The notes under the pieces: generated by a model | Told to the model about the DNA's origin: nothing | What the model saw: the letters and a program-made list of their open reading frames with translations, nothing else | Databases searched by the model: none | Translations under genes and position numbers: made by a program | Shown here: in pieces, positions 6,312 to 61,439 of the stretch | Layout of the letters: the number at the start of each line of letters is the position of its first letter | Numbering within the stretch: position 1 is the stretch's first letter | IMG/VR virus record: IMGVR_UViG_3300036832_001373 | Span: 83,530 to 147,529 of that record | Length of the DNA: 64,000 nucleotides | Source of the DNA: a virus | Direction: 5' to 3' (one strand)

Positions 6312-6860
6312 TTAAATGTTAATTGTTCCTACATCAGAGATTTTATCTATATCAGTGTAGTCGAAACTCCAGGTAATGCTTGGAGCAACAGCACGGCTTT
6401 CAGCCATTGACAGAGCAATTGCTGGATTTCCGATTGGGAAGACTCCGTAGAGAGTAGTTTTGATAGTCTTGGTTCCTGGATTATCATATTGTTGAATAGC
6501 TGCGGTGGACGAGATATCCTTTTTATTACCTCCTTTTCCTGTTATCCAGTTATAACATAGTTTCATCCAGGAAGCTATTGCAACTTGGATGTCTCCATCT
6601 ACACCTTCTACTAGTGTGGTAGTCCAAGTATGGTGGAACCTAGCTCTACCAGAGTACTCAAGAGTAAATCCAGCTAGGTCAACTGGTACCTGGTCTATAC
6701 CTATTCCTGGAATCTCCGTAGCAGTACAACGGAGACTCATGATCTGCGTCATCTGACCACCAATAGCTGCTCCTTTAGGAGTGATGGTCATCTGAAATTG
6801 ATACCCTTTAAAGGGATCAACTAGAGCTTCTATGTCCTCAACTCTGGTGTCACCAGCCAC
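6312..6860 (-). CDS. Tail tube protein (T4 gp19-like)
   Basis: 182 residues. The N-terminus DPFKGYQFQMTI followed by CTATEIPGIGIDQVPVDLAG and a YSGRARFHHTWTTTLVEG segment is the classic layout of myophage tail tube proteins, as are the late KTTLYGVFPIGNPAIALS and the aliphatic/aromatic C-terminal strand. The length is normal (T4 gp19 has 163 residues). The gene follows the sheath gene at 53 nt, the standard sheath-tube order. The product polymerises into the inner tube around the tape measure. Confidence 0.88.
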   Translation of the reverse strand: MAGDTRVEDIEALVDPFKGYQFQMTITPKGAAIGGQMTQIMSLRCTATEIPGIGIDQVPVDLAGFTLEYSGRARFHHTWTTTLVEGVDGDIQVAIASWMKLCYNWITGKGGNKKDISSTAAIQQYDNPGTKTIKTTLYGVFPIGNPAIALSMAESRAVAPSITWSFDYTDIDKISDVGTINI

Positions 6861-6913: not shown

Positions 6914-9602
6914 TTAACCAGTCGTAGCTCCGAGTAGATTGAACCCAGCCAACGCCTGAATCACGGAGAAATTAACTCCTGTGGCTGTGATAATATTCTG
7001 CAGCTGAATAAATTCAGCCGCTTTCTCTGGTTGTAGATAAATATCAACGTTTAGTTGGTTCATATCTATAACTTGTGGAGGATTGTTGGTCTCATCGCAA
7101 ACCGTCTTATAGGCATAGAGACCATTCTGAGCCTGAACAAGAGATAGATATTGGTTTAGAGCGTTTGTTATATCTAGACGAGTATATTGGTTGTTTAGTT
7201 CGAATAGCTTGAACTTCAAGAACTGTTTTGCAGCACGTTCAATCGTTATGATACAACGACGAACGTTGATTCTATCAAGGGCAGATGGCTTGGACTGTTG
7301 AGTCTTTTGACCAAAGACTACAATACCATCTCCAGGAGAGAAGATAAGAGGATTGATATTCACAGGATTTTGATAGAGAGCCTCTATATCTCCGATTGCA
7401 TCGTAACGAACCGTGACATCTACTGGAGGCAGAGTTTGTGATCTTATAACGCCACGATTATAACCAGCAGGAGCATACCAAGGATATGCCTGGTTATCAG
7501 TTCTAGCCATCACCTGAGCAATAAATCCAGACGGAGGAATTGGCATACCAGCTATATCATTATAGCTATCGTATACCTTAACCCAAGGTGAGTAGAGAGC
7601 ACAGAAGCTAGACTCGATATTCTGATAGTTTAGCCTCCAGTCAGAAGCCATAGTGATAGGAGTTATCTCAACTTTGTTGTAGGGTATGTCGAAGACAGCG
7701 AAACAGTCTCGACGTCTCTCAACAAGAGCTTGCATAGATTCTTGGACAGACCAGTCGATATCAGAGACGTATCCACCGTTGATAAGTATATTCATATCAA
7801 CGTATGCAGCATTTCCATACAACTGCCAACCCTGGATAATGTCTCCAGAAGTAACAGGCTGACCATCACTACCCATAGTTAGAGGAACTTTGGTTGTGGT
7901 AAATGCTGGCATCACATTCTGATCTAGATCAACGTTATCGAATACTCTAATAAAGTTAGAGTATCCGTTGATCGCAGTCTCTAGATACATGTTATTTCCA
8001 TAACCATCTTTCTTATTCTTAATTCTGGAGACATCCCAGACTTCTCTGGTAATGTCAATCCCATTTTGATTTTCATATACAACTAGTTGGAACCCTTCCG
8101 GATCCCAGAGAGTCTGGATTATTGATATCTTGAGATTGTTAGCCCAGACACCTGGATTTTCAGCATAGATCATAAAGGCGGTATTACCGGAGTCTGAGCC
8201 GATAAAGTTAGCCGAAATTGTTATTCCAGTTCCTGGAGCATTGACGAATGTGATCTCCAAAGCTCCATCATCAGCTACTAGAGTACCTGTCTGAATTCCT
8301 TGACCAGAGACGTTACCTAAACTATCTACCGTAACTGGGATCGTAGTGGTTCCAACTGCGATCGATAGAAGTTGAACGATAGGTGCTGGAGCTAGAGTAG
8401 CAGCAAACGTTGGAGTTAAGTTATCACCAGTACCAATTTCCTGGTTGACTGAAACTGGGAAGTACTCTGGAGTTTCAGTCGGAACTCCCTGAGCGATTGG
8501 AGTAGACGGATTAGCTGACGTGAAGGTAGCAGCAATCTGAGCTCCACTTGCAGGAGGAGTATCGAAAGTAACGTGAATAACACCAGACACGTAGTCGATA
8601 TCACCAGAGGTAATGCCAGTTCCAACGATAGAACCACCTCCGTCTGCTGTAGTATATCTGGCCGTGATAACGTTATTTAGAGCAGGAGCAGCAGAGAAAG
8701 TAACTGTTAGTGCCCCAGTAACTTTATTTATAGTACCAGAAACTAGTCCAACACCAGTAACGTTACCTAGACTATCAACCGTACAATCTATCTGAGTAGC
8801 TCCATTCATAATAGTTAACAAAGTTCCTATAGGAGCAGGAGCCAAATGAGAAGTAAAAGTAGTTGTAGTACCATCGCCAGTACCTATCTGGCTCTGATTG
8901 TAAACAGATACGTCGATCTGAGTAGCACCTACGTGAATTGCATTTAGAGATTGGAGAGGTACTGGACCTAAGATACCTGCAAAGATTCTAAAACTTGCAT
9001 TACCAACTGCGAATACTTGAGTTACGATTTGAGATATACCTGTTTTATTTATGATGACACCAGCATATGCGCCATTGACACACACTCTAGTGAAGTATAA
9101 CTGAGTCATCTCTTCTAGAGCACACAAACCACAGTACATAGCGTAACCGTAGTTTACATTAGGTGCTCCATTGATAGTTACTAACGCTTGAGTATTAGTA
9201 AATAATACTCTTTTGTTGACTGGTCCTCTCGCAGCTTGACCTACGATAGCTCCTACCGAGGTAGCTTGATTTTGGACTATTGCTGATAGATCTACGTCTC
9301 GTGCGTATACCGTTTATGTTCGCTAGAGTTCGCTACTCTCTAACCGTTCCTTTGAGGAACCGCTCATGGTTACCCATGAGACCAGACTATATCATCAACC
9401 ACTAGGGTTGTGTGGTGCTTCGGACCGCTTGGCCCTACTCCCTTACGGGATAGTCGTTGAACCTTCCTACCAAAGATGGTAGGCTCGGCTTCGGATTGTC
9501 CTGACTCGCTTATCCAGGAGTTCCCCGAAATTCTCCACATTGTCATTAGCGAATTGCTTCGCTACGGGGCTAATAGTAACCCGGGGCGGTATAGACGGCC
9601 AT
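6914..9602 (-). CDS. Tail sheath protein, split by a group I intron (exon 1 9579-9602, exon 2 6914-9310)
   Basis: Exon 1 is only 24 nt: ATG 9602 after a strong AGAAGGAGG ribosome site encodes MAVYTAPG. A stop follows within three codons in the unspliced frame. Removing 9311-9578 joins it in frame to VYARDVDLSAIVQ, giving a textbook sheath N-terminus (SPGVY-x-(R)EVDLS pattern) and an 806-residue protein. Residues about 145-345 carry repeated beta domains (IGTGDG...LAPAPI...VDSLGNV) inserted in the sheath. The C-terminal part has the conserved sheath region INVRRCIITIERAAKQF. The product contracts to drive the tube through the envelope. A frame-only gene call would miss exon 1 and start wrongly at 9139. 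Confidence 0.9.
9311..9578 (-). ncRNA. Group I intron in the tail sheath gene (268 nt, no internal ORF)
   Basis: The 5' exon ends CCCCGGGT and the intron begins TACTATTAGCCCC. GGGT can pair with GCCC in the intron to form a P1 with the required U-G at the splice site. The catalytic core shows CAACGACTA (complement of 9451-9459) and GATGATATAGTCTG (complement of 9383-9396), typical group I P3/P7 elements, plus several stable hairpins. The intron ends in G before GTATAC. The same two core strings occur in the capsid-gene intron at 36.4 kb. Splice positions come from the frame, the family N-terminus and P1 pairing, not from experiment. Confidence 0.88.
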
Positions 9603-9627: not shown

Positions 9628-10371
9628 CTACCTTTCTCTGTAAGGCCAAGTTTCTTCTGTCCAAACAGAAAAAGGAATCTTATTGTCTAGTGACCACTTA
9701 GTAGCCTCTAGAAGCTTTAGTTTTACTGTTAAGTCTAACAACTTTCTTTTTGGCTTAATCTCAATAAGTTCTCTAGAGTCGTCAATATATTCAACTAATA
9801 TATCTGGAATGTAGTGTTTTTCAACTCCTTCTAAAGAGTACGGAATTCTAAAAGGATTTATTTTAAATGTTCTCACGTTTTCATCATTATCTAAGTGTGC
9901 AAAAGCACGTAACTCCCAGGACGATTGATAATATATACGACCAGTCTTCTTAGAAAAATACCATCCTTTTATCTTGGATGTCTTACCTCCTCTAATAAGA
10001 GCACCTACTGTACGATTCCAGTACTCCGGATCTTTTCTTAACTCTTCTTTTGTAGCATTTCTTCTCTCAATTGAATGAGGAAGATTGAATCCACCTCTGG
10101 AATTTCCTTTTAACGACTCTGAAATCTTACCATCTTTATTACACTGAGAAGCTACGTAACTTTGTCTACAATTGTAACATCTTCCACCCTTAAATCGATA
10201 AGTTAGTCCATAAAAAGTCAAGTCTTTACCGCAGCCTATACATTTATCTTCGTTTGTAAACATCATATGTTTTCTAAAATAATTCTCAACTGAGAAATGA
10301 CGTTGAACTATATGTAGTCCTAAAGACTTCCAACTTTTGAAGTCTTTAGGACATTCTTTACAAGAGATCAT
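9628..10371 (-). CDS. PD-(D/E)XK-type homing endonuclease, free-standing upstream of the sheath gene
   Basis: 247 residues. The N-terminus has CKEC...H...H (residues 4-25) and the next 45 residues hold CIGC and CYNC, suggesting two small zinc modules. The catalytic part reads SSWELRAF (E154), HYIPDILVEY (D190) and ELIEIKPKRK (E204, K206), the TnsA/Ssp-type E-D-ExK arrangement. The stop lies 25 nt before the sheath ATG and the start 64 nt after the preceding gene. The gene is therefore not inside the intron but adjacent to exon 1. A 27-bp promoter-like motif precedes it. Presumed role: cutting intronless sheath alleles so that intron and nuclease spread together (inference). Confidence 0.75.
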   Translation of the reverse strand: MISCKECPKDFKSWKSLGLHIVQRHFSVENYFRKHMMFTNEDKCIGCGKDLTFYGLTYRFKGGRCYNCRQSYVASQCNKDGKISESLKGNSRGGFNLPHSIERRNATKEELRKDPEYWNRTVGALIRGGKTSKIKGWYFSKKTGRIYYQSSWELRAFAHLDNDENVRTFKINPFRIPYSLEGVEKHYIPDILVEYIDDSRELIEIKPKRKLLDLTVKLKLLEATKWSLDNKIPFSVWTEETWPYRER

Positions 10372-10435: not shown

Positions 10436-10615
10436 TCAGGCCGAGGGAGATGTAGAGGGATCTTTGATCACTCTAACTCCAGGCGGCAATTTAGTACGAT
10501 TGACTGTAGTTGGAATTGTAATCTTAGACTTAGGAGGAACCCAATATGAATGCTCATCGTCTGCTTTAACTGATACTTGAGCATCATTCCGATTGTAGAT
10601 TGTAGTTGAGGTCAT
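10436..10615 (-). CDS. 59-residue orphan of the collagen-fibre N-terminal anchor domain
   Basis: ATG 10615 to TGA 10436. The protein (TIYNRNDAQVSVKADD, then SYWVPP, TIPTTV, LPPGVRV) aligns over nearly its whole length with the first 50 residues of the three collagen-like proteins at 10.7, 17.5 and 18.5 kb ([25 protein letters not shown]). The collagen part and the C-terminal domain are missing. It may be a free anchor subunit or the remnant of a deleted fibre gene. It sits between the beta-helix fibre gene and the endonuclease gene. Confidence 0.7.
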   Translation of the reverse strand: MTSTTIYNRNDAQVSVKADDEHSYWVPPKSKITIPTTVNRTKLPPGVRVIKDPSTSPSA

Positions 10616-13600: not shown

Positions 13601-14242
13601 GACTCCAGAGGGACCAGTAGGTCCAGGAGGCCCTGTAGCTCCTGCACTAGCTGCAGTTCCTGGTATTCCTGAGGGGCCAGCAGATCCAGTAGCTCCTTGA
13701 ACTCCAGTGGATCCGACTGGACCTGGAGATCCTGGAGTTCCAGATGTTCCAGGAGCCCCAGTAGCTCCAGCTGCTCCGGTAGGACCTGCTATACCAGTAG
13801 CTCCAGGAGGACCAGTAGCTCCAGACGCTCCTGCTGCTGATACAGTTCCAGGTATTCCTGAGGGACCAGATGCACCAGTAGCACCTGGTGCTCCCTGAAT
13901 TCCTATAGGACCCATTACCCCCTGAGAACCTTGAGGTCCAGTAGCTCCAGTGACCCCCTCAACCCCAGCTGGACCAGTAGCTCCTTGAGCTACAGCAGTT
14001 CCAGGTATTCCCTGAGGACCAGTAGGTCCTGTAGCTCCAGTATAATCTGGAGGTTTCTGAACGCTAGGGCCAGTAGCTCCGTCAGGATCTCCTGGATCTG
14101 CTACCCAAACACCTGTAGGTAAAGTACTAACAGTAGTTGGTATAGTAGTATAAGCATTGGCGGCAATCCAATAGATTTGCCCATCGTCACCATTAATCGC
14201 CACTTGATAGTTATTACTATTGTATAACGTAGTGAAGTTCAT
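10655..14242 (-). CDS. Collagen-like tail fibre/spike with beta-helix (pectate-lyase-like) domain
   Basis: 1,195 residues. Residues 1-50 form the shared anchor domain ([30 protein letters not shown]). About residues 55-250 are Gly-X-Y collagen repeats rich in GATGP. Then comes a beta-helix entry: FGTIGDGY, DNAPMFQQALDFA and VVKVPYGKYRIDDTLHVGWG, as in the pectate-lyase superfamily. The C-terminal 250 residues are beta-rich. Family knowledge: such proteins are virion-attached receptor-binding or polysaccharide-degrading spikes. The beta-helix is paralogous to the next gene (14.3-17.5 kb; shared PTKTDR, G-I-x-G-I-x-I-x-G-A/V-N). Confidence 0.8.
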   Translation of the reverse strand: MNFTTLYNSNNYQVAINGDDGQIYWIAANAYTTIPTTVSTLPTGVWVADPGDPDGATGPSVQKPPDYTGATGPTGPQGIPGTAVAQGATGPAGVEGVTGATGPQGSQGVMGPIGIQGAPGATGASGPSGIPGTVSAAGASGATGPPGATGIAGPTGAAGATGAPGTSGTPGSPGPVGSTGVQGATGSAGPSGIPGTAASAGATGPPGPTGPSGVGTPGIPGPTGPSGVPGASGTPGATGPAGIGNVDTLNFDTYSAFTTPGVTIASTYNYVYVRARTGTYPPAASLEATPLLYKKSTSATGLYGEVTVDSKIWTPVYSRNPVNAGEFGTIGDGYSTQVFSAGQWTGTSTANSPTITGITQRNGAADASGIYVNQQFAVVNYASKGSALAPQVPRIVQSKPTANSITLDGNMPASGTVSFTVYNSITQGTDNAPMFQQALDFAMQNGCSVVKVPYGKYRIDDTLHVGWGNNAYDITLIGTYRPNFSATIGNAPVFYPTKTDRPAVNIQGSRHSGIKGITIVGVNANFAVGSQAQGFNHSGNANDWLAPELIPIGTNGGGISRYAPYAGIAVDAYSAFPQANNYPPRTLPAWVISGGYNHPNGWATAALSSITISGTTATATAVNPHGLSAVPTWLQIINAVPSSYNGIYNCNVLSNGTQFTYTPSTTPGGNATTPGNWGGGTIPTWSSSQVHIEETEVDGFGVDIVNQPNGDGNADFTHIRDCTVTCAPYAICIANTQSRSVEIRNNMWQYCHTFICNNKFGAEGGGIYGPIENNAGGQGYNIADLYLGTAGPVKISHIYVEDVVRLGDFSGGSFTSAVHVSDCTFGFNEDNGHGCIPHSMMSASADVILTNVIVNGYSRITTLNDKYGFLTINGGSWQSAINGLGNLQTQDVVHQQAVNYCGGMILGPCRFNPGGTRSLQINNLKGTWFQTPTSTQGTLIHDSIINRSISLSRRQMSQASYLYQDSQYRLWNMAVPVEYLVDMTTVGGGGTVTYPGNADTMTFHFDQSLMVSGSAFKLSPGDLLYHQNTGTIFLVTIVGANVGGGGGYVPVTTQQQNNILVDTLGNSTFVSNLNPDTALTGYTIIIKTGVWIPAQLEYGTFTSGSATISHVHRGDGNGTDLATYYSVGDIWYGINWNYNSTTPAPTAPGFSYPLAQFGATLTAVTNGTAGGEGSITMNTTSAVSGIYPLFPYALK

Positions 14243-17471: not shown

Positions 17472-18457
17472 GCACCGCCTCCAGGCTTTGGGCTTACAAT
17501 AACCCAGCCATAGTCATTACCAATAGTAATAGTTGAATCCCCATCACACTTCTCAGAAGAAGTAAATGCAACCGTGATAGCTCCAGTACTAGCACTGCCT
17601 CGAAAGTCTTTAATCAACACTCCAACTGAGAAGGCCTCAGGAGCCATACTTGAAGCAAGTGGTAGTGTAACTGTTGTAGGTGTTGTTGGTGGCGTGTTTA
17701 CCAACACTCTCTGTACGTTCGTAGCAACTGTGTACGGTGAGGTAGTAATAGTTGCTTGGTTAAAATTGGAACCAGGTCCAACTGGACCTGGAGGCCCTGA
17801 GGGTCCTGTAGGTCCTTGAGAACCTATAGGTCCTAGAGGTCCTGTAGCTCCTACCCCAGTTGGTCCCGTAGCCCCAGGAGGACCGAGAGGACCTTGAGAT
17901 CCAAGAGCTCCTGTAGCTCCTTGAACTCCTGTAGGTCCTTGAGTTCCTAGAACTCCTGTTGATCCGGTAGATCCTTGAGGTCCTAAAAGTCCTTGAACTC
18001 CTGTAGGTCCAGTTGATCCAGGTAAAGAAGGACCAGTAGGTCCAGTAGCTCCTTGAGTACTAGCTGTACCAGGAGGGCCAGTGGAGCCTGTAGCTCCTAT
18101 AGTACTAGCTGGACCAGGAGGTCCAGTTGAGCCTGTAGCACCTAGAGAACCAGTTGCTCCAGAAATTCCTACTCCTGTAGCTCCAGCAGGACCAGTAGGT
18201 CCAGTGGCTCCCTTATATTGTACTATACCTAAAGAGCCTGGAGGAACATAGGGACCAGTCGCCCCAGTAGCTCCCTGAACTACCCAGACACCAGGGGGAA
18301 GTGTACTTACAGTAGAAGGTATAGTAGTATAATCATTAGCAGTTATCCAATAGGTGTTACCATCGTCTGCATGAATACCAACTTGGTAATCATTACTATT
18401 ATAAAGAATAGTAGGAGCTTGTGTGCTAGTTAGATTTCTTAGAGTTGGTATGTTCAT
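17456..18457 (-). CDS. Collagen-like fibre protein (333 aa)
   Basis: The shared anchor domain starts near residue 16 ([36 protein letters not shown]). About 55 Gly-X-Y triplets with GATGPTGP follow, to about residue 230. The C-terminal domain of about 100 residues is beta-rich ([18 protein letters not shown], ending GGGAWYRS). Collagen-like stretches in phage fibres trimerise. Together with its neighbours it forms a cluster of three such fibres, plus a distinct one at 22-23 kb and one at 35 kb. Function: presumably adsorption appendage (inference). Confidence 0.78.
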
Positions 18458-18471
18458 CTACCAAACCTCTA

Positions 18472-19770
18472 TCATAGAAGTTGCCAAGCAATTGTTGAGG
18501 TATCTGTAGTTGAAGATGATGTAACAGTAAAACTAGTTCCAACAGTACGACTTGAGACCCTCAACCATCCAGGCGTTCCACCATCTATCTGAGAAGTCAA
18601 GAATATATTAGAAGTAGATTGAACAGCAGTAGTGCTTACAACAGCAGTACCTCCAGACAATACAGCTGTTCCAATAGTACCGGAAGGTCCTGTAGCTCCT
18701 TGAGGACCAGTTGGGCCAGTTGCCCCTACTCCTGTAGCTCCTGTAGGTCCTCCAGACGGCCCCGTAGCTCCAGTTAAACCTGTTATTCCAGTCGCTCCTA
18801 CCCCTGTAGCTCCTGTAGCTCCTATTCCAGTTGGCCCAGTAGCTCCAGTTGGACCTTGGACTCCTGTAGGTCCAGGAACTACAGACGACGCTCCAGTTGC
18901 TCCAGTTGGACCAGTACCTCCAAGAAAGCCAGTAGCCCCAGTAGCTCCAGCTCCAGTAGGTCCAGTAGCACCAACTGGACCAGCAGGACCTATTGTAGTA
19001 GATGCTGCTCCAGTTGCTCCTGTAGCACCTACTCCAGCTGGTCCTGTAGCTCCAGTAGATCCAGCAATCGTAGAAGCAGCTCCTGTAGCTCCCGTAGGAC
19101 CTACACCAGAGGGTCCAGTAGAACCTGTAGCTCCGACACCTCCCTGTAATCCTATAGGACCAATTAGACCTTGAGGCCCAATAGGACCTGTAGCTCCGGT
19201 TGATCCCTGAGTAGTAGCTGGACCTGGAGGTCCAGTAGCTCCAGTGGGTCCTAGTGGACCGGTAGCACCAGCACCAGTTGGACCAGTTGAACCCACTGGT
19301 CCCGGAGGACCGGGAGAACCAACCGGACCTATGGTACCACCAGGACCAGTAGCTCCTGTAGGACCAGTAGTCCCTACTCCAGTGGAACCTTTAGGACCAG
19401 TTGGACCTGTAGCCCCAGAAGATCCAAAAGGTCCAGTTGGACCATCAGGGCCTGTAGCTCCGGTAGCGCCAGCACCAGTTGGACCTGTAGCTCCAGAAGG
19501 ACCAGGAGGTCCAGTAGCACCTATAGTATCAGCTGGACCAGGAGGTCCGGTAGCTCCAGTAGCTCCTGTGAAGAAAGGAGGTCCTGGACCTGTAGCACCG
19601 GTAGCTCCTGAGGGAGCATCGGCTATCCACACTCCAGTAGGGAGTGTAACTGAATCTACGGTAGCAGGTATTACAGTGTAATCGTTAGCCTTAATCCAAT
19701 ATGTATTGCTGTCATCAGCAGTAACTCCAACTTGATAGTTATTACTATTATAGAGTACAGTTACATCCAT
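18472..19770 (-). CDS. Collagen-like fibre protein (432 aa)
   Basis: Residues 1-52 are the shared anchor ([29 protein letters not shown]). Residues about 55-360 are almost uninterrupted Gly-X-Y triplets ([15 protein letters not shown]), the longest collagen stretch in the window. The final 70 residues form a Ser/Thr-rich beta domain ending TSTIAWQLL. No transmembrane segment. The DNA is correspondingly repetitive, so length variation between relatives by slippage or recombination is likely. Confidence 0.78.
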
Positions 19771-34131: not shown

Positions 34132-34638
34132 ATGGAATATAGTAAGCATCCCTACTACAAGTACTTTAAGCACATGATTGAAAGAGGTAGAAAGTTTGGA
34201 TCAGACTTTACCTTTGGTAAAGAAGAATTTTATAGATGGTTACCTATCATAGGACCAATACCCGAAGGTATGATACGACCTACAGTAGGTAGGTATGACC
34301 ACTCTAAAGGCTACATATTCGACCAAGAAAATAATAGATGGAATTTTAGGTGGGAAGAATTAAGTGAAAACAATCGTGACGGAGGGAAAAGAGGATTTAA
34401 GAAACAATTTGAATTAGGAAAGAATCCATTTCAAGATGGAACGGCATCTATATCTTCTGTGGCTAGTCCTAATCATGTCAGTAAGACTGGAAAGTCAGGA
34501 ATGCATACAGGAGCAGCGTGGAGAGCGTCCATTTCTAGTCCGAATCACGTATCAAAACGAGTACTTACTTGTCCAACTTGTGGTTACACATGTGTGGGTC
34601 CACTAGGAATGTGTAGCCACAAGAAAACTCACGAGTAG
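34132..34638 (+). CDS. HNH-like homing endonuclease with the GIY-YIG paralogues' C-terminal half
   Basis: 168 residues on the opposite strand to its surroundings. The N-terminal half has VGRYDHSKGYIFDQENNRW, which matches the R-x-D-x-S-K-G-Y-x-x-x-N-x-R-W core of small HNH homing enzymes. From about residue 85 the modules (GFKKQFELGKNPF, SVASPNHVSKTGKSG, SPNHVSKRVLTCPTCG) are those of the six GIY-YIG-like proteins here, ending in a CxxC...H-x3-H finger. It therefore looks like a catalytic-domain swap onto a shared DNA-binding tail. Confidence 0.75.
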   Translation: MEYSKHPYYKYFKHMIERGRKFGSDFTFGKEEFYRWLPIIGPIPEGMIRPTVGRYDHSKGYIFDQENNRWNFRWEELSENNRDGGKRGFKKQFELGKNPFQDGTASISSVASPNHVSKTGKSGMHTGAAWRASISSPNHVSKRVLTCPTCGYTCVGPLGMCSHKKTHE

Positions 34639-35754: not shown

Positions 35755-36273
35755 ATGTTCTATAGAATCTATTATGTAGTTGGAGTAAAAGTAGGATGTA
35801 CCGTACAAACAGTAGAGGCAAGATGTAGATATCAAAATCTTTGGGAAGGTTATGTCGTAGAAATTTTAGAAATTATACCTTTAGAATTTGGAGCTAAGTT
35901 TGCTGGTAATCAAGAACGATTTTGGCAATGGTATTATAGATGTGAAGAAAAAGAGAATACTCACTACGAAAGAAATTGGGGTACTAATCTGACTCCTGAA
36001 AGGAGATCAGAGGTCGCTCGTACTACTAGTGGATTTGCGACCGGAGCAGCTGGACGAGCTTCGTTAGCTAGTCCTAAGCATACTAGTAAAACAGGTAGAA
36101 CAGGAATGCAGACTATAGTTAAGTGTCCTTACTGTCCTAAAGAAGGACGTCAGATGCCAATGAAACGTTGGCACTTTAATAATTGTCCAGAGTTGAAGAA
36201 AATGTACCAAAGATGGTACAGAGAATATAGTATCGTGACTCCTGATAATCCTAACTTGTACTATGTAGACTAG
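35755..36273 (+). CDS. GIY-YIG-like homing endonuclease beside the intron-bearing capsid gene
   Basis: 172 residues. FYRIYYVVGVKVGCTVQTVE, then R, GNQERFWQWYYR (E) and YERNWG (N) form the nuclease. Repeats GFATGAAGRASLASPKHTSK and GRTGMQ precede a finger CPYCPKEGRQMPMKRWHFNNC. The C-terminus extends about 25 residues beyond the relatives. It converges on the capsid gene; the stop lies 47 nt from the capsid stop, so it is not intron-encoded. Likely cuts intronless capsid alleles (inference). Confidence 0.78.
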   Translation: MFYRIYYVVGVKVGCTVQTVEARCRYQNLWEGYVVEILEIIPLEFGAKFAGNQERFWQWYYRCEEKENTHYERNWGTNLTPERRSEVARTTSGFATGAAGRASLASPKHTSKTGRTGMQTIVKCPYCPKEGRQMPMKRWHFNNCPELKKMYQRWYREYSIVTPDNPNLYYVD

Positions 36274-36320: not shown

Positions 36321-38147
36321 TTACGCAGAGTAGTTAGAAACTGTGCCCTTCACAAAATATCCTGGGTTGTTGACGAACATATCGTACCAGCTTTGTTATC
36401 GCTAAGGTTCTTTATCCCTAGCTTCTTACGCTTTCACGTAAGCTCAGACTATATCATCATCCAAGACTAAAAACTTGGAGTCCGGCGCTCGTGGAGGAAT
36501 TATCGCCTACGGTCAGAGACCGCTTACGGCTCACCTCTAGTCGTTGCTCCTTCAAGGGACTTTCATCCCAAGCTTGGATCAGGATTGCCCTCGTCTTCAC
36601 GTTAGGGTGTTCCCTGAGTTCACCGGATTTAGTGTCCACCTTCAATGATATGTAATGGACATCAAACCTTGCTGGTTTTGTAACGTCGGGGCTTGGAACA
36701 CAGGTGTGAAGTAAATTGGTATCCATTCGGCCAAAATTATGGACGAATCACCTGCCATGTATCCCTTGTACCCGCAGATAAAGTCGTTCGTGTTCAGGAC
36801 TTTGAGGGTCTTGATCACAGGAAGAGTACCATCCCTCAAATGGCCAAGAACGTGAGCACCAATCGGAGCAGTGATCGGTGCACGAACGAAGCCCTTGGTA
36901 GCAGCCAGAAGGTTACAGGCATTGGCTCCAGCTAGGACCCAAGAGAGACCACCACGACCCATCGTGCCTTGAATCAATGCTTCAGCTTCGTTGATCTTCA
37001 GCTCGATATCCGCATACTTCGATTGACGATCGAAGTACTGAGGAGACTGAGTCGCGTCGAAGTTCAAGGTAGCCTGAGGTGCAGCAGCTTGGTTGATCAG
37101 ATACATGAGCGCATTGTCTCGCTCATTCTTTAGGAACTGACCAGCGAGCTCAGCCAAAGTGTCTTGCACATCGATGGCTAGATGCGCCGACGCAGCAAGA
37201 CCAGCTGCCACCGAGTAGGTGAACTTCAGAGGATGGATCTTAGCTTTGACAGGGACGGTGATCAAGTCGAACTCGATCTCGTTGATGCCAGCAGTATTAG
37301 ATTCAGAGCTCCAGGCGTACTGAGCGTAGATAGCAGAGCCAGTGGTCGGAGCCGTCAGGAATTTGATGGCAGTAGCGCCAGCAGTACCACCAGTGTAGGT
37401 GATAGTATTCGGACCAGCAGGATCTAAGACACCAGCAGGACCAATTAGACCACCAGAACCGTTGTCAGTAACAACTACTGTATTACCACCAACCACTGCT
37501 ACGATTGAGACAGTGCTAGGCTGGATCGGGGTACGACCTAAGGTCCAGGTGTAGGTGACAGTAGCAGCCGGAACGCTAGCGACAACCTTCTCGTTCACCA
37601 CTTCCGAAGCGTAGTCGTAGGTGGCAGTCTTGAAGATTTCTTGACCAGCTACGACAGGACCGACATCTGTCGCAGGCAGAGAGTTGGAGAAGATTGGCTT
37701 CATCACGAAGATTTCACCAACCTGACCATCGATTGGTTGGATGTCAACTAGTTCTGGAGCCACCATATTAGGATAGAAGATACGGACGACGTCCAGAACT
37801 CGAGGGTTCAACGCACCGAGGTTGGTTTGAACGGTAGTTTCACCGTAGAGATTCTTGGCTTGCTCAAGGAATGCTCGGGTTTTTTCGACGGCGAGCATTG
37901 TGAGAGCAGCTTTCCATTGGTCCTTGGGGTTGTTGGACTCAAAGAGGGCACCGATACCGGTCCACTCACTGTACTTACGGTTACGTTTGTTCTGGATATC
38001 ATAGAACTCTCCCTCATCAAAGAGTCGAGCTCCGGTCTTGATCTTGTTCTCACGGAACAAGACAGCTGCTGAGTCCTTGTTTTCAGTCATTAGCAAGGAC
38101 GGATTGATCCTTGAGGCCGTCTCGGCCAATTCGTTTAAGAGACCCAT
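36321..38147 (-). CDS. Major capsid protein (T4 gp23-like), split by a group I intron (exon 1 36655-38147, exon 2 36321-36390)
   Basis: Splicing out 36391-36654 gives 1,563 nt and a 520-residue protein (T4 gp23 has 521). Exon 1 shows VRIFYPNMVAPELVDIQPID, the gp23-type core, and LSWVLAGANACNLLAATKGF. Exon 2 supplies WYDMFVNNPGYFVKGTVSNY before the stop, joined as MSIWYDMF. The unspliced frame would end five codons into the intron. Residues about 195-285 are an inserted beta domain (PSTVSIVAVVGG, NTITYTGG, SAIYAQYAW). The N-terminus MGLLNELAETAS resembles the leader family and is probably cut by the prohead protease. The weak ribosome site lies just before ATG 38147. Confidence 0.92.
36391..36654 (-). 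ncRNA. Group I intron in the major capsid gene (264 nt, no ORF of its own)
   Basis: The 5' exon end TGTCCAT can pair with GTGGACA 15 nt inside the intron, giving a 7-bp P1 with the U-G at the splice site. The core shows CAACGACTA (complement of 36538-36546), AATCCTGATCCAAGC (Q-type element) and GATGATATAGTCTG (complement of 36445-36458), the last shared exactly with the sheath intron. The 3' end is placed at G 36391, where the frame closes correctly; a shift of a few bases is possible. Confidence 0.85.
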
Positions 38148-48731: not shown

Positions 48732-49244
48732 ATGTCAGAAGTAGTAACATATACAATCTATCATGCTTTTGGAGACAAAATAGGATGTACAACAAACTAT
48801 CCACATAGATGCTACCAACAAGGATTCAAAGATGGAGAATTTGAGTCTCTCAAGGAACTAGAATTTGCTAAGAAGACTCTTGATACCGATAAAATAGCTG
48901 AATTCTTAGAAAGAGACTATCAAGCTTTATATGGATATAGTTATGACGATGCTTCTTACAGAAATAATTGGGGTAATAGATCAACTCCAGAAAAGAGAAG
49001 AGAAAGAAGTAGTAAATCAGGTAAGAGAGCAGCAGAACTTGGAAAGTGTGGAATACAAAATTTTACACGAGAACAACAATCAGAATATGGGAAACTAGGA
49101 GGATTTGCGACAGGAGCAGCAGGTAGAGCGTCGATAGCTAGTCCAAACCACAGTACCAAAAAGATTCATACATGTCCTATATGTGGAAGAACAGGAAAAG
49201 TTCCTGGGATTATCCGTCACATCAAAAGTCATACTAAGATTTAG
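48732..49244 (+). CDS. GIY-YIG-like homing endonuclease (170 aa)
   Basis: TYTIYHAFGDKIGCTTNYPH with R, then ERDYQALYG (E) and YRNNWG (N). Repeats GKRAAELGKCGIQ, GKLGGFATGAAGR and ASIASPNHSTKKI precede the finger CPICGRTGKVPGIIRHIKSH. It is on the plus strand and its stop overlaps the stop of the leftward 49.2-kb gene by 4 nt, indicating insertion at the very end of that gene. Confidence 0.78.
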   Translation: MSEVVTYTIYHAFGDKIGCTTNYPHRCYQQGFKDGEFESLKELEFAKKTLDTDKIAEFLERDYQALYGYSYDDASYRNNWGNRSTPEKRRERSSKSGKRAAELGKCGIQNFTREQQSEYGKLGGFATGAAGRASIASPNHSTKKIHTCPICGRTGKVPGIIRHIKSHTKI

Positions 49245-60923: not shown

Positions 60924-61439
60924 ATGCTAATAAATGGTATATACTATTATGTAATATATCACGCTGTAGGAGTAAAATGCGGGTGTACGGTGACCTACAG
61001 ATACAGAAAGAGTAGGTATAAGGAAGGGACCGTATTTGAAATCCTAGACTTGATACCTAGATCTCTAGGAGATAAGTTCGCTGGAGACATAGAGTGGTTT
61101 TATGCTGACTGGTACGGTTACCAAAGAGGACCTCATTACTCCAAAAGTAATTGGGGTCTTAGAATGACTCAAGAACAAAGAATCAGAGCTGGTTCTAAAG
61201 GAAGTGGTTCTAAAGGAGGAAAGAGAGCCGCTGAGTTAGGAAAAACTGGATTTATGACTATGTCTCAAGAAAGAAGAGGAGCTCTAGCTAAGAAGGGATC
61301 TGAAGTAGCTTGTGCTGGCCCTAACCATAATAGTAAACAAATTTTGACATGTACTATTTGTGGCCGCACCATGAAAGGTCTCCTTGCAATGGCATCTCAT
61401 ATGAGAGCTCATACTAAAAAGAGGTCATGTTTAAAATAA
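60924..61439 (+). CDS. GIY-YIG-like homing endonuclease (171 aa)
   Basis: YYYVIYHAVGVKCGCTVTYR with R, GDIEWFYADWYG (E) and YSKSNWG (N). Repeats GGKRAAELGKTGF and CAGPNHNSKQ precede a finger CTICGRTMKGLLAMASHMRA with H. Second gene of the unit begun at 60.7 kb, behind AAGAGG. Confidence 0.78.
   Translation: MLINGIYYYVIYHAVGVKCGCTVTYRYRKSRYKEGTVFEILDLIPRSLGDKFAGDIEWFYADWYGYQRGPHYSKSNWGLRMTQEQRIRAGSKGSGSKGGKRAAELGKTGFMTMSQERRGALAKKGSEVACAGPNHNSKQILTCTICGRTMKGLLAMASHMRAHTKKRSCLK

What the first reader, a model, noticed from the sequence alone, without database searches (positions are those of the whole stretch)
9311..9602. Sheath gene with an eight-codon first exon before a group I intron
Exon 1 (9579-9602) encodes only MAVYTAPG; the intron removes the in-frame stop and joins VYARDVDLS. 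Automatic annotation would start the sheath at 9139 and lose 65 residues including the conserved N-terminus. The nuclease gene is outside the intron, upstream of the start codon.
Basis: partly seen in the sequence, partly recalled or inferred. Interest (0 to 1): 0.7.

Follow-up and report, generated by a model that had tools for sequence, protein, structure and literature searches.

The report
Self-splicing intron splits phage tail-sheath gene
A small self-splicing RNA element interrupts a phage's tail-sheath gene after only eight codons, beside a gene for a DNA-cutting enzyme; close copies of the same element sit in a neighbouring tail gene of related phages, each beside a different candidate enzyme gene, so it looks like a mobile intron that borrows separately encoded enzymes to spread.

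Summary
Rfam places a group I intron at 9363-9588 (79.4 bits). Five related phage contigs (about 70% sheath identity) read straight through MAVYIAPG|VYARDVDLS, giving exon 1 = 9579-9602, intron = 9311-9578 (268 nt) and exon 2 = 6914-9310. U-G pairing in P1, a terminal G, nine compensatory pair changes and a Shine-Dalgarno sequence before 9602 agree. (1) An 82.5%-identical intron sits in the tail-tube gene of three relatives; the tube here has none, and where their sheath 5' end is held it has no intron. The genes themselves are only 59-65% identical, so the intron moved between genes. (2) Every intron-bearing copy has an ORF 49-80 nt upstream: a PD-(D/E)XK/TnsA-like nuclease here, HNH-like or GIY-YIG-like candidates at the tube. 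Intron-free copies have none. (3) A decayed fragment of this nuclease family lies upstream of the intron-free sheath in two near-identical relatives. Most likely this is collaborative homing, known from cyanophage psbA/F-CphI. Splicing in cells and DNA cleavage are untested. The kind is known; one intron beside different nucleases is the interesting part.

The parts
9579..9602 (-). sheath exon 1 (MAVYTAPG), ends in U paired to G9570 in P1
9311..9578 (-). group I intron, 268 nt, no ORF of its own; last base G (omega G)
   Evidence: Rfam RF00028 79.4 bits; boundaries from intron-free relatives; 76 pairs, 9 with compensatory change
9567..9582 (-). P1: GGGUUA paired with UAGCCC (includes internal guide)
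   Evidence: MFE fold; counted
6914..9310 (-). sheath exon 2 (VYARDVDLS..., 798 aa)
   Evidence: tail sheath phrog_23 1.4e-75; PF17482/PF04984
9608..9616 (-). Shine-Dalgarno AGAAGGAGG before the exon-1 ATG
   Evidence: sequence; nothing similar before 9139
9628..10371 (-). free-standing homing-type nuclease P0001: possible N-terminal zinc fingers (below cut-off), C-terminal TnsA-like PD-(D/E)XK domain
   Evidence: PF08722 3.8e-10; Foldseek TnsA 1t0f 1.7e-7; E153, D190, E204, K206 invariant in 6 family members
10436..10615 (-). 59-aa gene that directly precedes the sheath in L003, L005, L006 and L008; marks where the nuclease gene was inserted
6312..6860 (-). tail tube gene, no intron here; the relatives' tube intron site would lie between 6804 and 6803 (AAAGGG|TAT)

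Best explanation
[quoted passage not shown] The separately encoded PD-(D/E)XK nuclease 49 nt upstream most likely cuts intron-free sheath genes of co-infecting relatives at or near the insertion site, a site the intron splits in its own genome. Repair from this genome then copies nuclease and intron together (collaborative homing). Well supported by sequence: intron, splice sites, protein product, nuclease fold, intron relocation between tail genes, and presence or absence of intron and nuclease together. Inferred: splicing in cells, cleavage, the cut position, and joint inheritance.
For: Rfam hit. Intron-free sheaths in five relatives give the exact junction, and spliced translation is open for 806 aa. 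P1 has the U-G at the 5' splice site and the intron ends in G. All 76 proposed pairs hold in the sheath and two tube introns; 9 pairs change on both sides (0/500 shuffles; 0 when slid). Exon 1 and the first 57 codons of exon 2 differ from relatives mainly at synonymous positions. The intron is 82.5% identical to tube-gene introns of L005 and L007/L013, while the host genes are 65% (sheath) and 59% (tube) identical at DNA level. A nuclease-like ORF lies 49-80 nt upstream of each intron-bearing copy (window sheath; tubes of L005/L006 and L007) and of none of the intron-free sheath or tube copies examined; counting L005/L006 once this is 3 of 3 against 0 of 9, exact p about 0.005. P0001 matches TnsA by sequence and fold. 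Its closest relatives are ORFs of the same family at other intergenic sites in related phages, outside any detected intron. A family member lies between two halves of a group I intron core in a capsid-like gene of another phage. A 50-nt relic of the family's 3' end lies upstream of the intron-free sheath in L005/L006 (score 45, shuffles 24.9 sd 3.0, 0/500).
Against: No RNA or cleavage data. The cut site of P0001 is unknown; free-standing nucleases can cut hundreds of bases or more away (PMC2988022). Homing nucleases often cluster near essential genes (PMC10448857), so adjacency is weaker evidence than a uniform null suggests (p about 0.007 for both introns of the window). The tube-associated ORFs are only weakly recognised as nucleases: HNH at E = 0.002, GIY-YIG by motif only. 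The relic is significant in one lineage only (L003, L004 and L008 are not).
Confidence: 0.8

Rival explanations
1. The intron is real, but the nuclease is an independent intronless-homing gene that cuts elsewhere; its neighbourhood to the intron is incidental and the intron spreads by other routes, such as co-conversion or reverse splicing.
For: The same nuclease family occurs without introns at four other places in three related contigs. Free-standing nucleases often cut far from their own gene (PMC2988022).
Against: Intron and upstream ORF co-occur at both sites (3 of 3 against 0 of 9). One family member is intron-encoded in another phage.
Confidence: 0.25
2. ORF 9628-10371 is not a nuclease but a structural head-completion (T4 gp4-like) protein that happens to lie there.
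For: Best PHROG hit is head closure, phrog_218, 4.5e-15, and no other phrog_218 match was found in this genome.
Against: The syntenic gap of 81-123 nt in L003, L005, L006 and L008 has no such gene, so it is dispensable at this place. The catalytic residues are intact and the fold matches TnsA. Its N-terminal region resembles that of another ORF of this genome.
Confidence: 0.04
3. No splicing: the sheath is translated from ATG 9139 and the upstream part is a decayed remnant.
For: ATG 9139 opens the longest contiguous ORF.
Against: No Shine-Dalgarno before 9139 and a strong one before 9602. The 65 N-terminal residues are conserved with mostly synonymous change. The intron structure is intact with compensatory changes.
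Confidence: 0.02

Closest known systems
Cyanophage S-PM2 psbA group I intron with free-standing F-CphI (collaborative homing)
   Same: Group I intron with the nuclease gene next to the interrupted gene, and an intron-free allele in a relative (PMC6083498).
   Different: There the nuclease uses an Endo VII motif and cleavage of the intron-free gene, blocked by the intron, was shown. Here the nuclease is PD-(D/E)XK/TnsA-like, the gene is the tail sheath, and cleavage is untested.
T3/T7-like phages and ICP1 terminase intron with adjacent T5orf172 nuclease (PMC10448857)
   Same: Nuclease beside, not inside, the intron-bearing gene.
   Different: Other host genes and nuclease families; the passages read do not report one intron paired with different nucleases at two sites in related phages.
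Cluster J mycobacteriophage introns (LittleE capsid, BAKA and Optimus tail genes; PMC3706429)
   Same: Group I introns in virion genes, an intron segment shared between a capsid and a tail gene, splicing shown by RT-PCR.
   Different: The LittleE intron carries its own nuclease ORF and BAKA's has none; unrelated phages.
Staphylococcus phage Twort orf142 introns (tail tube; PMC11878797)
   Same: Group I introns in a tail-tube gene.
   Different: An unrelated phage; several introns in one gene, with exon skipping reported.

Membership tests
Group I introns (RF00028) | Covariance-model match above gathering score | tested here: met
   79.4 bits against 50
Group I introns (RF00028) | P1 with U-G at the 5' splice site, P3-P9 core, terminal G | tested here: met
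   U9579-G9570; P1-P9 pairs counted 100% paired in three introns; last base G9311
Group I introns (RF00028) | Guanosine-initiated self-splicing | not testable with these tools
   needs an in vitro splicing assay
PD-(D/E)XK (TnsA-like) nucleases | Sequence and fold match with conserved E...D...ExK | tested here: met
   PF08722 40.6 bits against cut-off 26.5; TnsA 1t0f 1.7e-7; residues invariant in six members
PD-(D/E)XK (TnsA-like) nucleases | DNA cleavage activity | not testable with these tools
   needs purified protein
Collaborative homing locus | ORF-less intron with adjacent free-standing nuclease, both absent together in relatives | tested here: met
Collaborative homing locus | Nuclease cuts the intron-free site and the intron blocks cutting | not testable with these tools
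   cut site unknown
T4 gp4-type head-completion proteins | Core structural gene kept at this locus in relatives | tested here: not met
   absent between the 59-aa gene and the sheath in L003, L005, L006 and L008

The most novel reading that the evidence does not exclude
An ORF-less group I intron that spreads among essential virion genes of one phage group by pairing with whichever free-standing nuclease (PD-(D/E)XK, HNH-like or GIY-YIG-like) occupies the border of the gene it sits in. Intron and nuclease would then be interchangeable partners rather than a fixed pair, and the nuclease could arrive first, decay and be replaced.
Probability: 0.35. Interest if true: 0.65.

Novelty: new member of a known kind. 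Interest (0 to 1): 0.5.

Why it matters
For annotation, gene callers would truncate a major virion protein at 9139 and miss its conserved N-terminus, and the same holds for the tube gene of relatives. For biology, how collaborative homing loci arise is described as unclear, with nuclease turnover as a proposed alternative (PMC10448857). Here one intron family occurs at two sites beside three different candidate nucleases, with intron-free alleles and a nuclease relic in close relatives, so that question becomes directly testable.

Tried and rejected
The first phase assumed for the tube intron (AAA GGG|) clashed with the U-G and terminal-G rules; re-phasing as AAG GGT|TAC resolved it. An early idea that the MCP intron also follows a Gly GGT codon was wrong: its junction is CCAT|GTACGAT, shown by L138. 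A nuclease search in viral contigs found no close relative, and one with a two-sequence alignment found only L082's contig again. The sheath alignment search added no new loci. The intron core pattern gave 79 further loci, none with a sheath, tube or capsid homologue of these proteins by phmmer. No exact match to a 27-nt stretch of the intron in genome contigs. The relic test against P0001 alone was suggestive for L005 only, tied with one other place in the window; the family member L141 made it clear. The AF2 model of the GIY-YIG-like ORF was too weak to search.

Full report
What is there. The window is part of a 147,529-base virus record with a T4-like set of virion genes, including gp18-like sheath and gp23-like capsid. 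On the minus strand, the sheath gene begins at 9602 with eight codons (MAVYTAPG), preceded by AGAAGGAGG at 9616-9608. It is then interrupted by 268 nt (9578-9311) and resumes at 9310 with VYARDVDLS for 798 codons. Unspliced reading meets TAG as the third codon of the intron. Without splicing the longest ORF starts at ATG 9139 and lacks 65 residues.

Is it an intron? Rfam gives RF00028 at 9363-9588 with 79.4 bits. The exact boundaries come from five relatives at about 70% sheath identity: L003, L004, L005, L006 and L008 read MAVYIAPGVYARDVDLS (or LAVYIAPG...) without interruption. Only exon 1 = 9579-9602 with the intron ending at G9311 satisfies the reading frame, the U-G pair at the 5' splice site (U9579-G9570 in P1 GGGUUA/UAGCCC) and the terminal G. 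I wrote a 76-pair structure (P1-P9.2 with P3 and P7) and counted it on the sheath intron and two tube introns: all cells pair, nine pairs change on both sides, 0 of 500 shuffles reach this, and slid versions have none. Only three sequences are compared, and the structure was taken from one of them.

The same intron in another gene. Relatives L005/L006 and L007 (=L013) carry an intron of 265 and 263 nt in the tail-tube gene, after K-G (AAGGGT|TACCAA). Intron-free tubes in this window, L003, L004, L008 and L009 confirm the site. The sheath intron and tube introns share 217 of 263 and 216 of 261 aligned bases (82.5-82.8%). The genes themselves are 65% (sheath) and 59% (tube) identical at DNA level between window and relatives. 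Occupancy is complementary where it can be read: the window has the sheath intron and not the tube intron, L005/L006 the reverse (the 5' end of the L007 sheath is not held). This points to relocation of the intron between two neighbouring genes; at the 5' splice sites only GGGT is shared. The route (DNA recombination or reverse splicing) is not known.

The neighbour. ORF 9628-10371 (P0001, 247 aa) ends 25 nt before the sheath ATG, 49 nt from the intron. It has TnsA-like PF08722 at 3.8e-10, a Foldseek match to TnsA at 1.7e-7 on a model that is confident only from about residue 135, and the residues E153, D190, E204 and K206 invariant in six family members. Zinc-finger matches in its N-terminal half are below cut-off. 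PHROG's label head closure reflects kinship with gp4-like proteins; four relatives (two of them near-identical) have the 59-aa gene directly before the sheath with only 81-123 nt between them, so P0001 is an optional gene at this place. Related contigs G003, G004 and G005 carry four further copies of this family in other gene neighbourhoods with different N-termini (44-46% identity in the matched parts), which is what a mobile nuclease would show. In a different phage (L082) a family member lies between two halves of a group I intron core in a capsid-like gene, with a second intron behind it (the first intron's halves were recognised by eye).

Association. At the tube, L005/L006 have a 192-aa ORF (weak HNH match) 56 nt before the intron, and L007 has a 255-aa ORF with GIY-YIG-like motifs (no library match) 80 nt before it. 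No intron-free sheath or tube copy examined has such an ORF directly upstream. Counting the near-identical L005/L006 once this is 3 of 3 against 0 of 9, exact p about 0.005 (my calculation). Within the window, both introns lie within 114 nt of a nuclease-like ORF, p about 0.007 for uniform placement; since such genes cluster near essential genes, that value is optimistic.

A relic. The 81-nt gap before the intron-free sheath of L005 (identical in L006) aligns with the 3' end of the L141 nuclease gene: score 45, shuffles 24.9 sd 3.0, 0 of 500. So a nuclease of this family probably once stood at the same place there and decayed. L003, L004 and L008 give no significant match. Whether L005's sheath ever had the intron cannot be told.

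Mechanism. The best reading is collaborative homing: the nuclease cuts the intron-free sheath near the insertion site, the intron protects its own genome, and repair copies both. Cleavage of the intron-free gene and protection by the intron were demonstrated for F-CphI and the psbA intron of S-PM2 (PMC6083498), and the arrangement is noted for T7-like phages and ICP1 (PMC10448857). Here the arrangement and distribution are shown, while cutting, protection and joint inheritance are inferred. A location near the gene's end lets a nuclease gene sit just outside the gene and still be close to the insertion site; the capsid intron of this window, near the 3' end with a nuclease-like ORF just downstream, fits the same pattern (inference).

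Novelty. Group I introns in virion genes are known: capsid and tail genes of Cluster J mycobacteriophages (PMC3706429) and Twort's tail tube (PMC11878797). My literature searches found no report of one in a tail-sheath gene, in a library that lacks most subscription papers. I file this as a new member of a known kind; what stands out is one intron family beside different candidate nucleases at two sites.

Noticed in passing
36388-36654 (-), in the capsid gene 36321-38147: Second group I intron (267 nt, Rfam 72.8 bits) about 22 codons before the end of the gp23-like capsid gene; junction CCAT|GTACGAT confirmed by intron-free L138. It is only distantly similar to the sheath intron.
   Followed up: partly
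35755-36273 (+): GIY-YIG-like ORF 114 nt beyond the capsid intron on the opposite strand; 57% identical in the alignment to the ORF upstream of the tube intron in L007. No library hit, and the AF2 model is weak.
   Followed up: partly
34132-34638, 48732-49244, 60924-61439 (all +): Three more homing-nuclease-like ORFs lying antisense to the surrounding genes, sharing short zinc-finger-like and NUMOD-like segments (partly by eye).
   Followed up: partly
L138:5560-6687: HNH nuclease gene right after an intron-free capsid gene; its C-terminal end (VTPENPNLYYVD) matches that of the GIY-YIG-like ORFs, so catalytic domains seem swapped onto one tail domain.
   Followed up: no
L082:5579-8463 (-): Capsid-like gene of another phage that seems to carry two group I introns in a row, the first holding a P0001-family nuclease ORF.
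   Followed up: partly
10436-10615, 14063-14242, 18272-18412, 19609-19770 (-): The 59-aa protein before the sheath resembles segments at three other places in this window (42-47% identity), at least one of them the N-terminus of a collagen-like fibre protein.
   Followed up: no
L020:1501-2150 (G000:C1 near 28076): Another ORF of this genome whose N-terminal region resembles that of P0001 but whose C-terminal part looks different (possibly Vsr-like, by eye).
   Followed up: no
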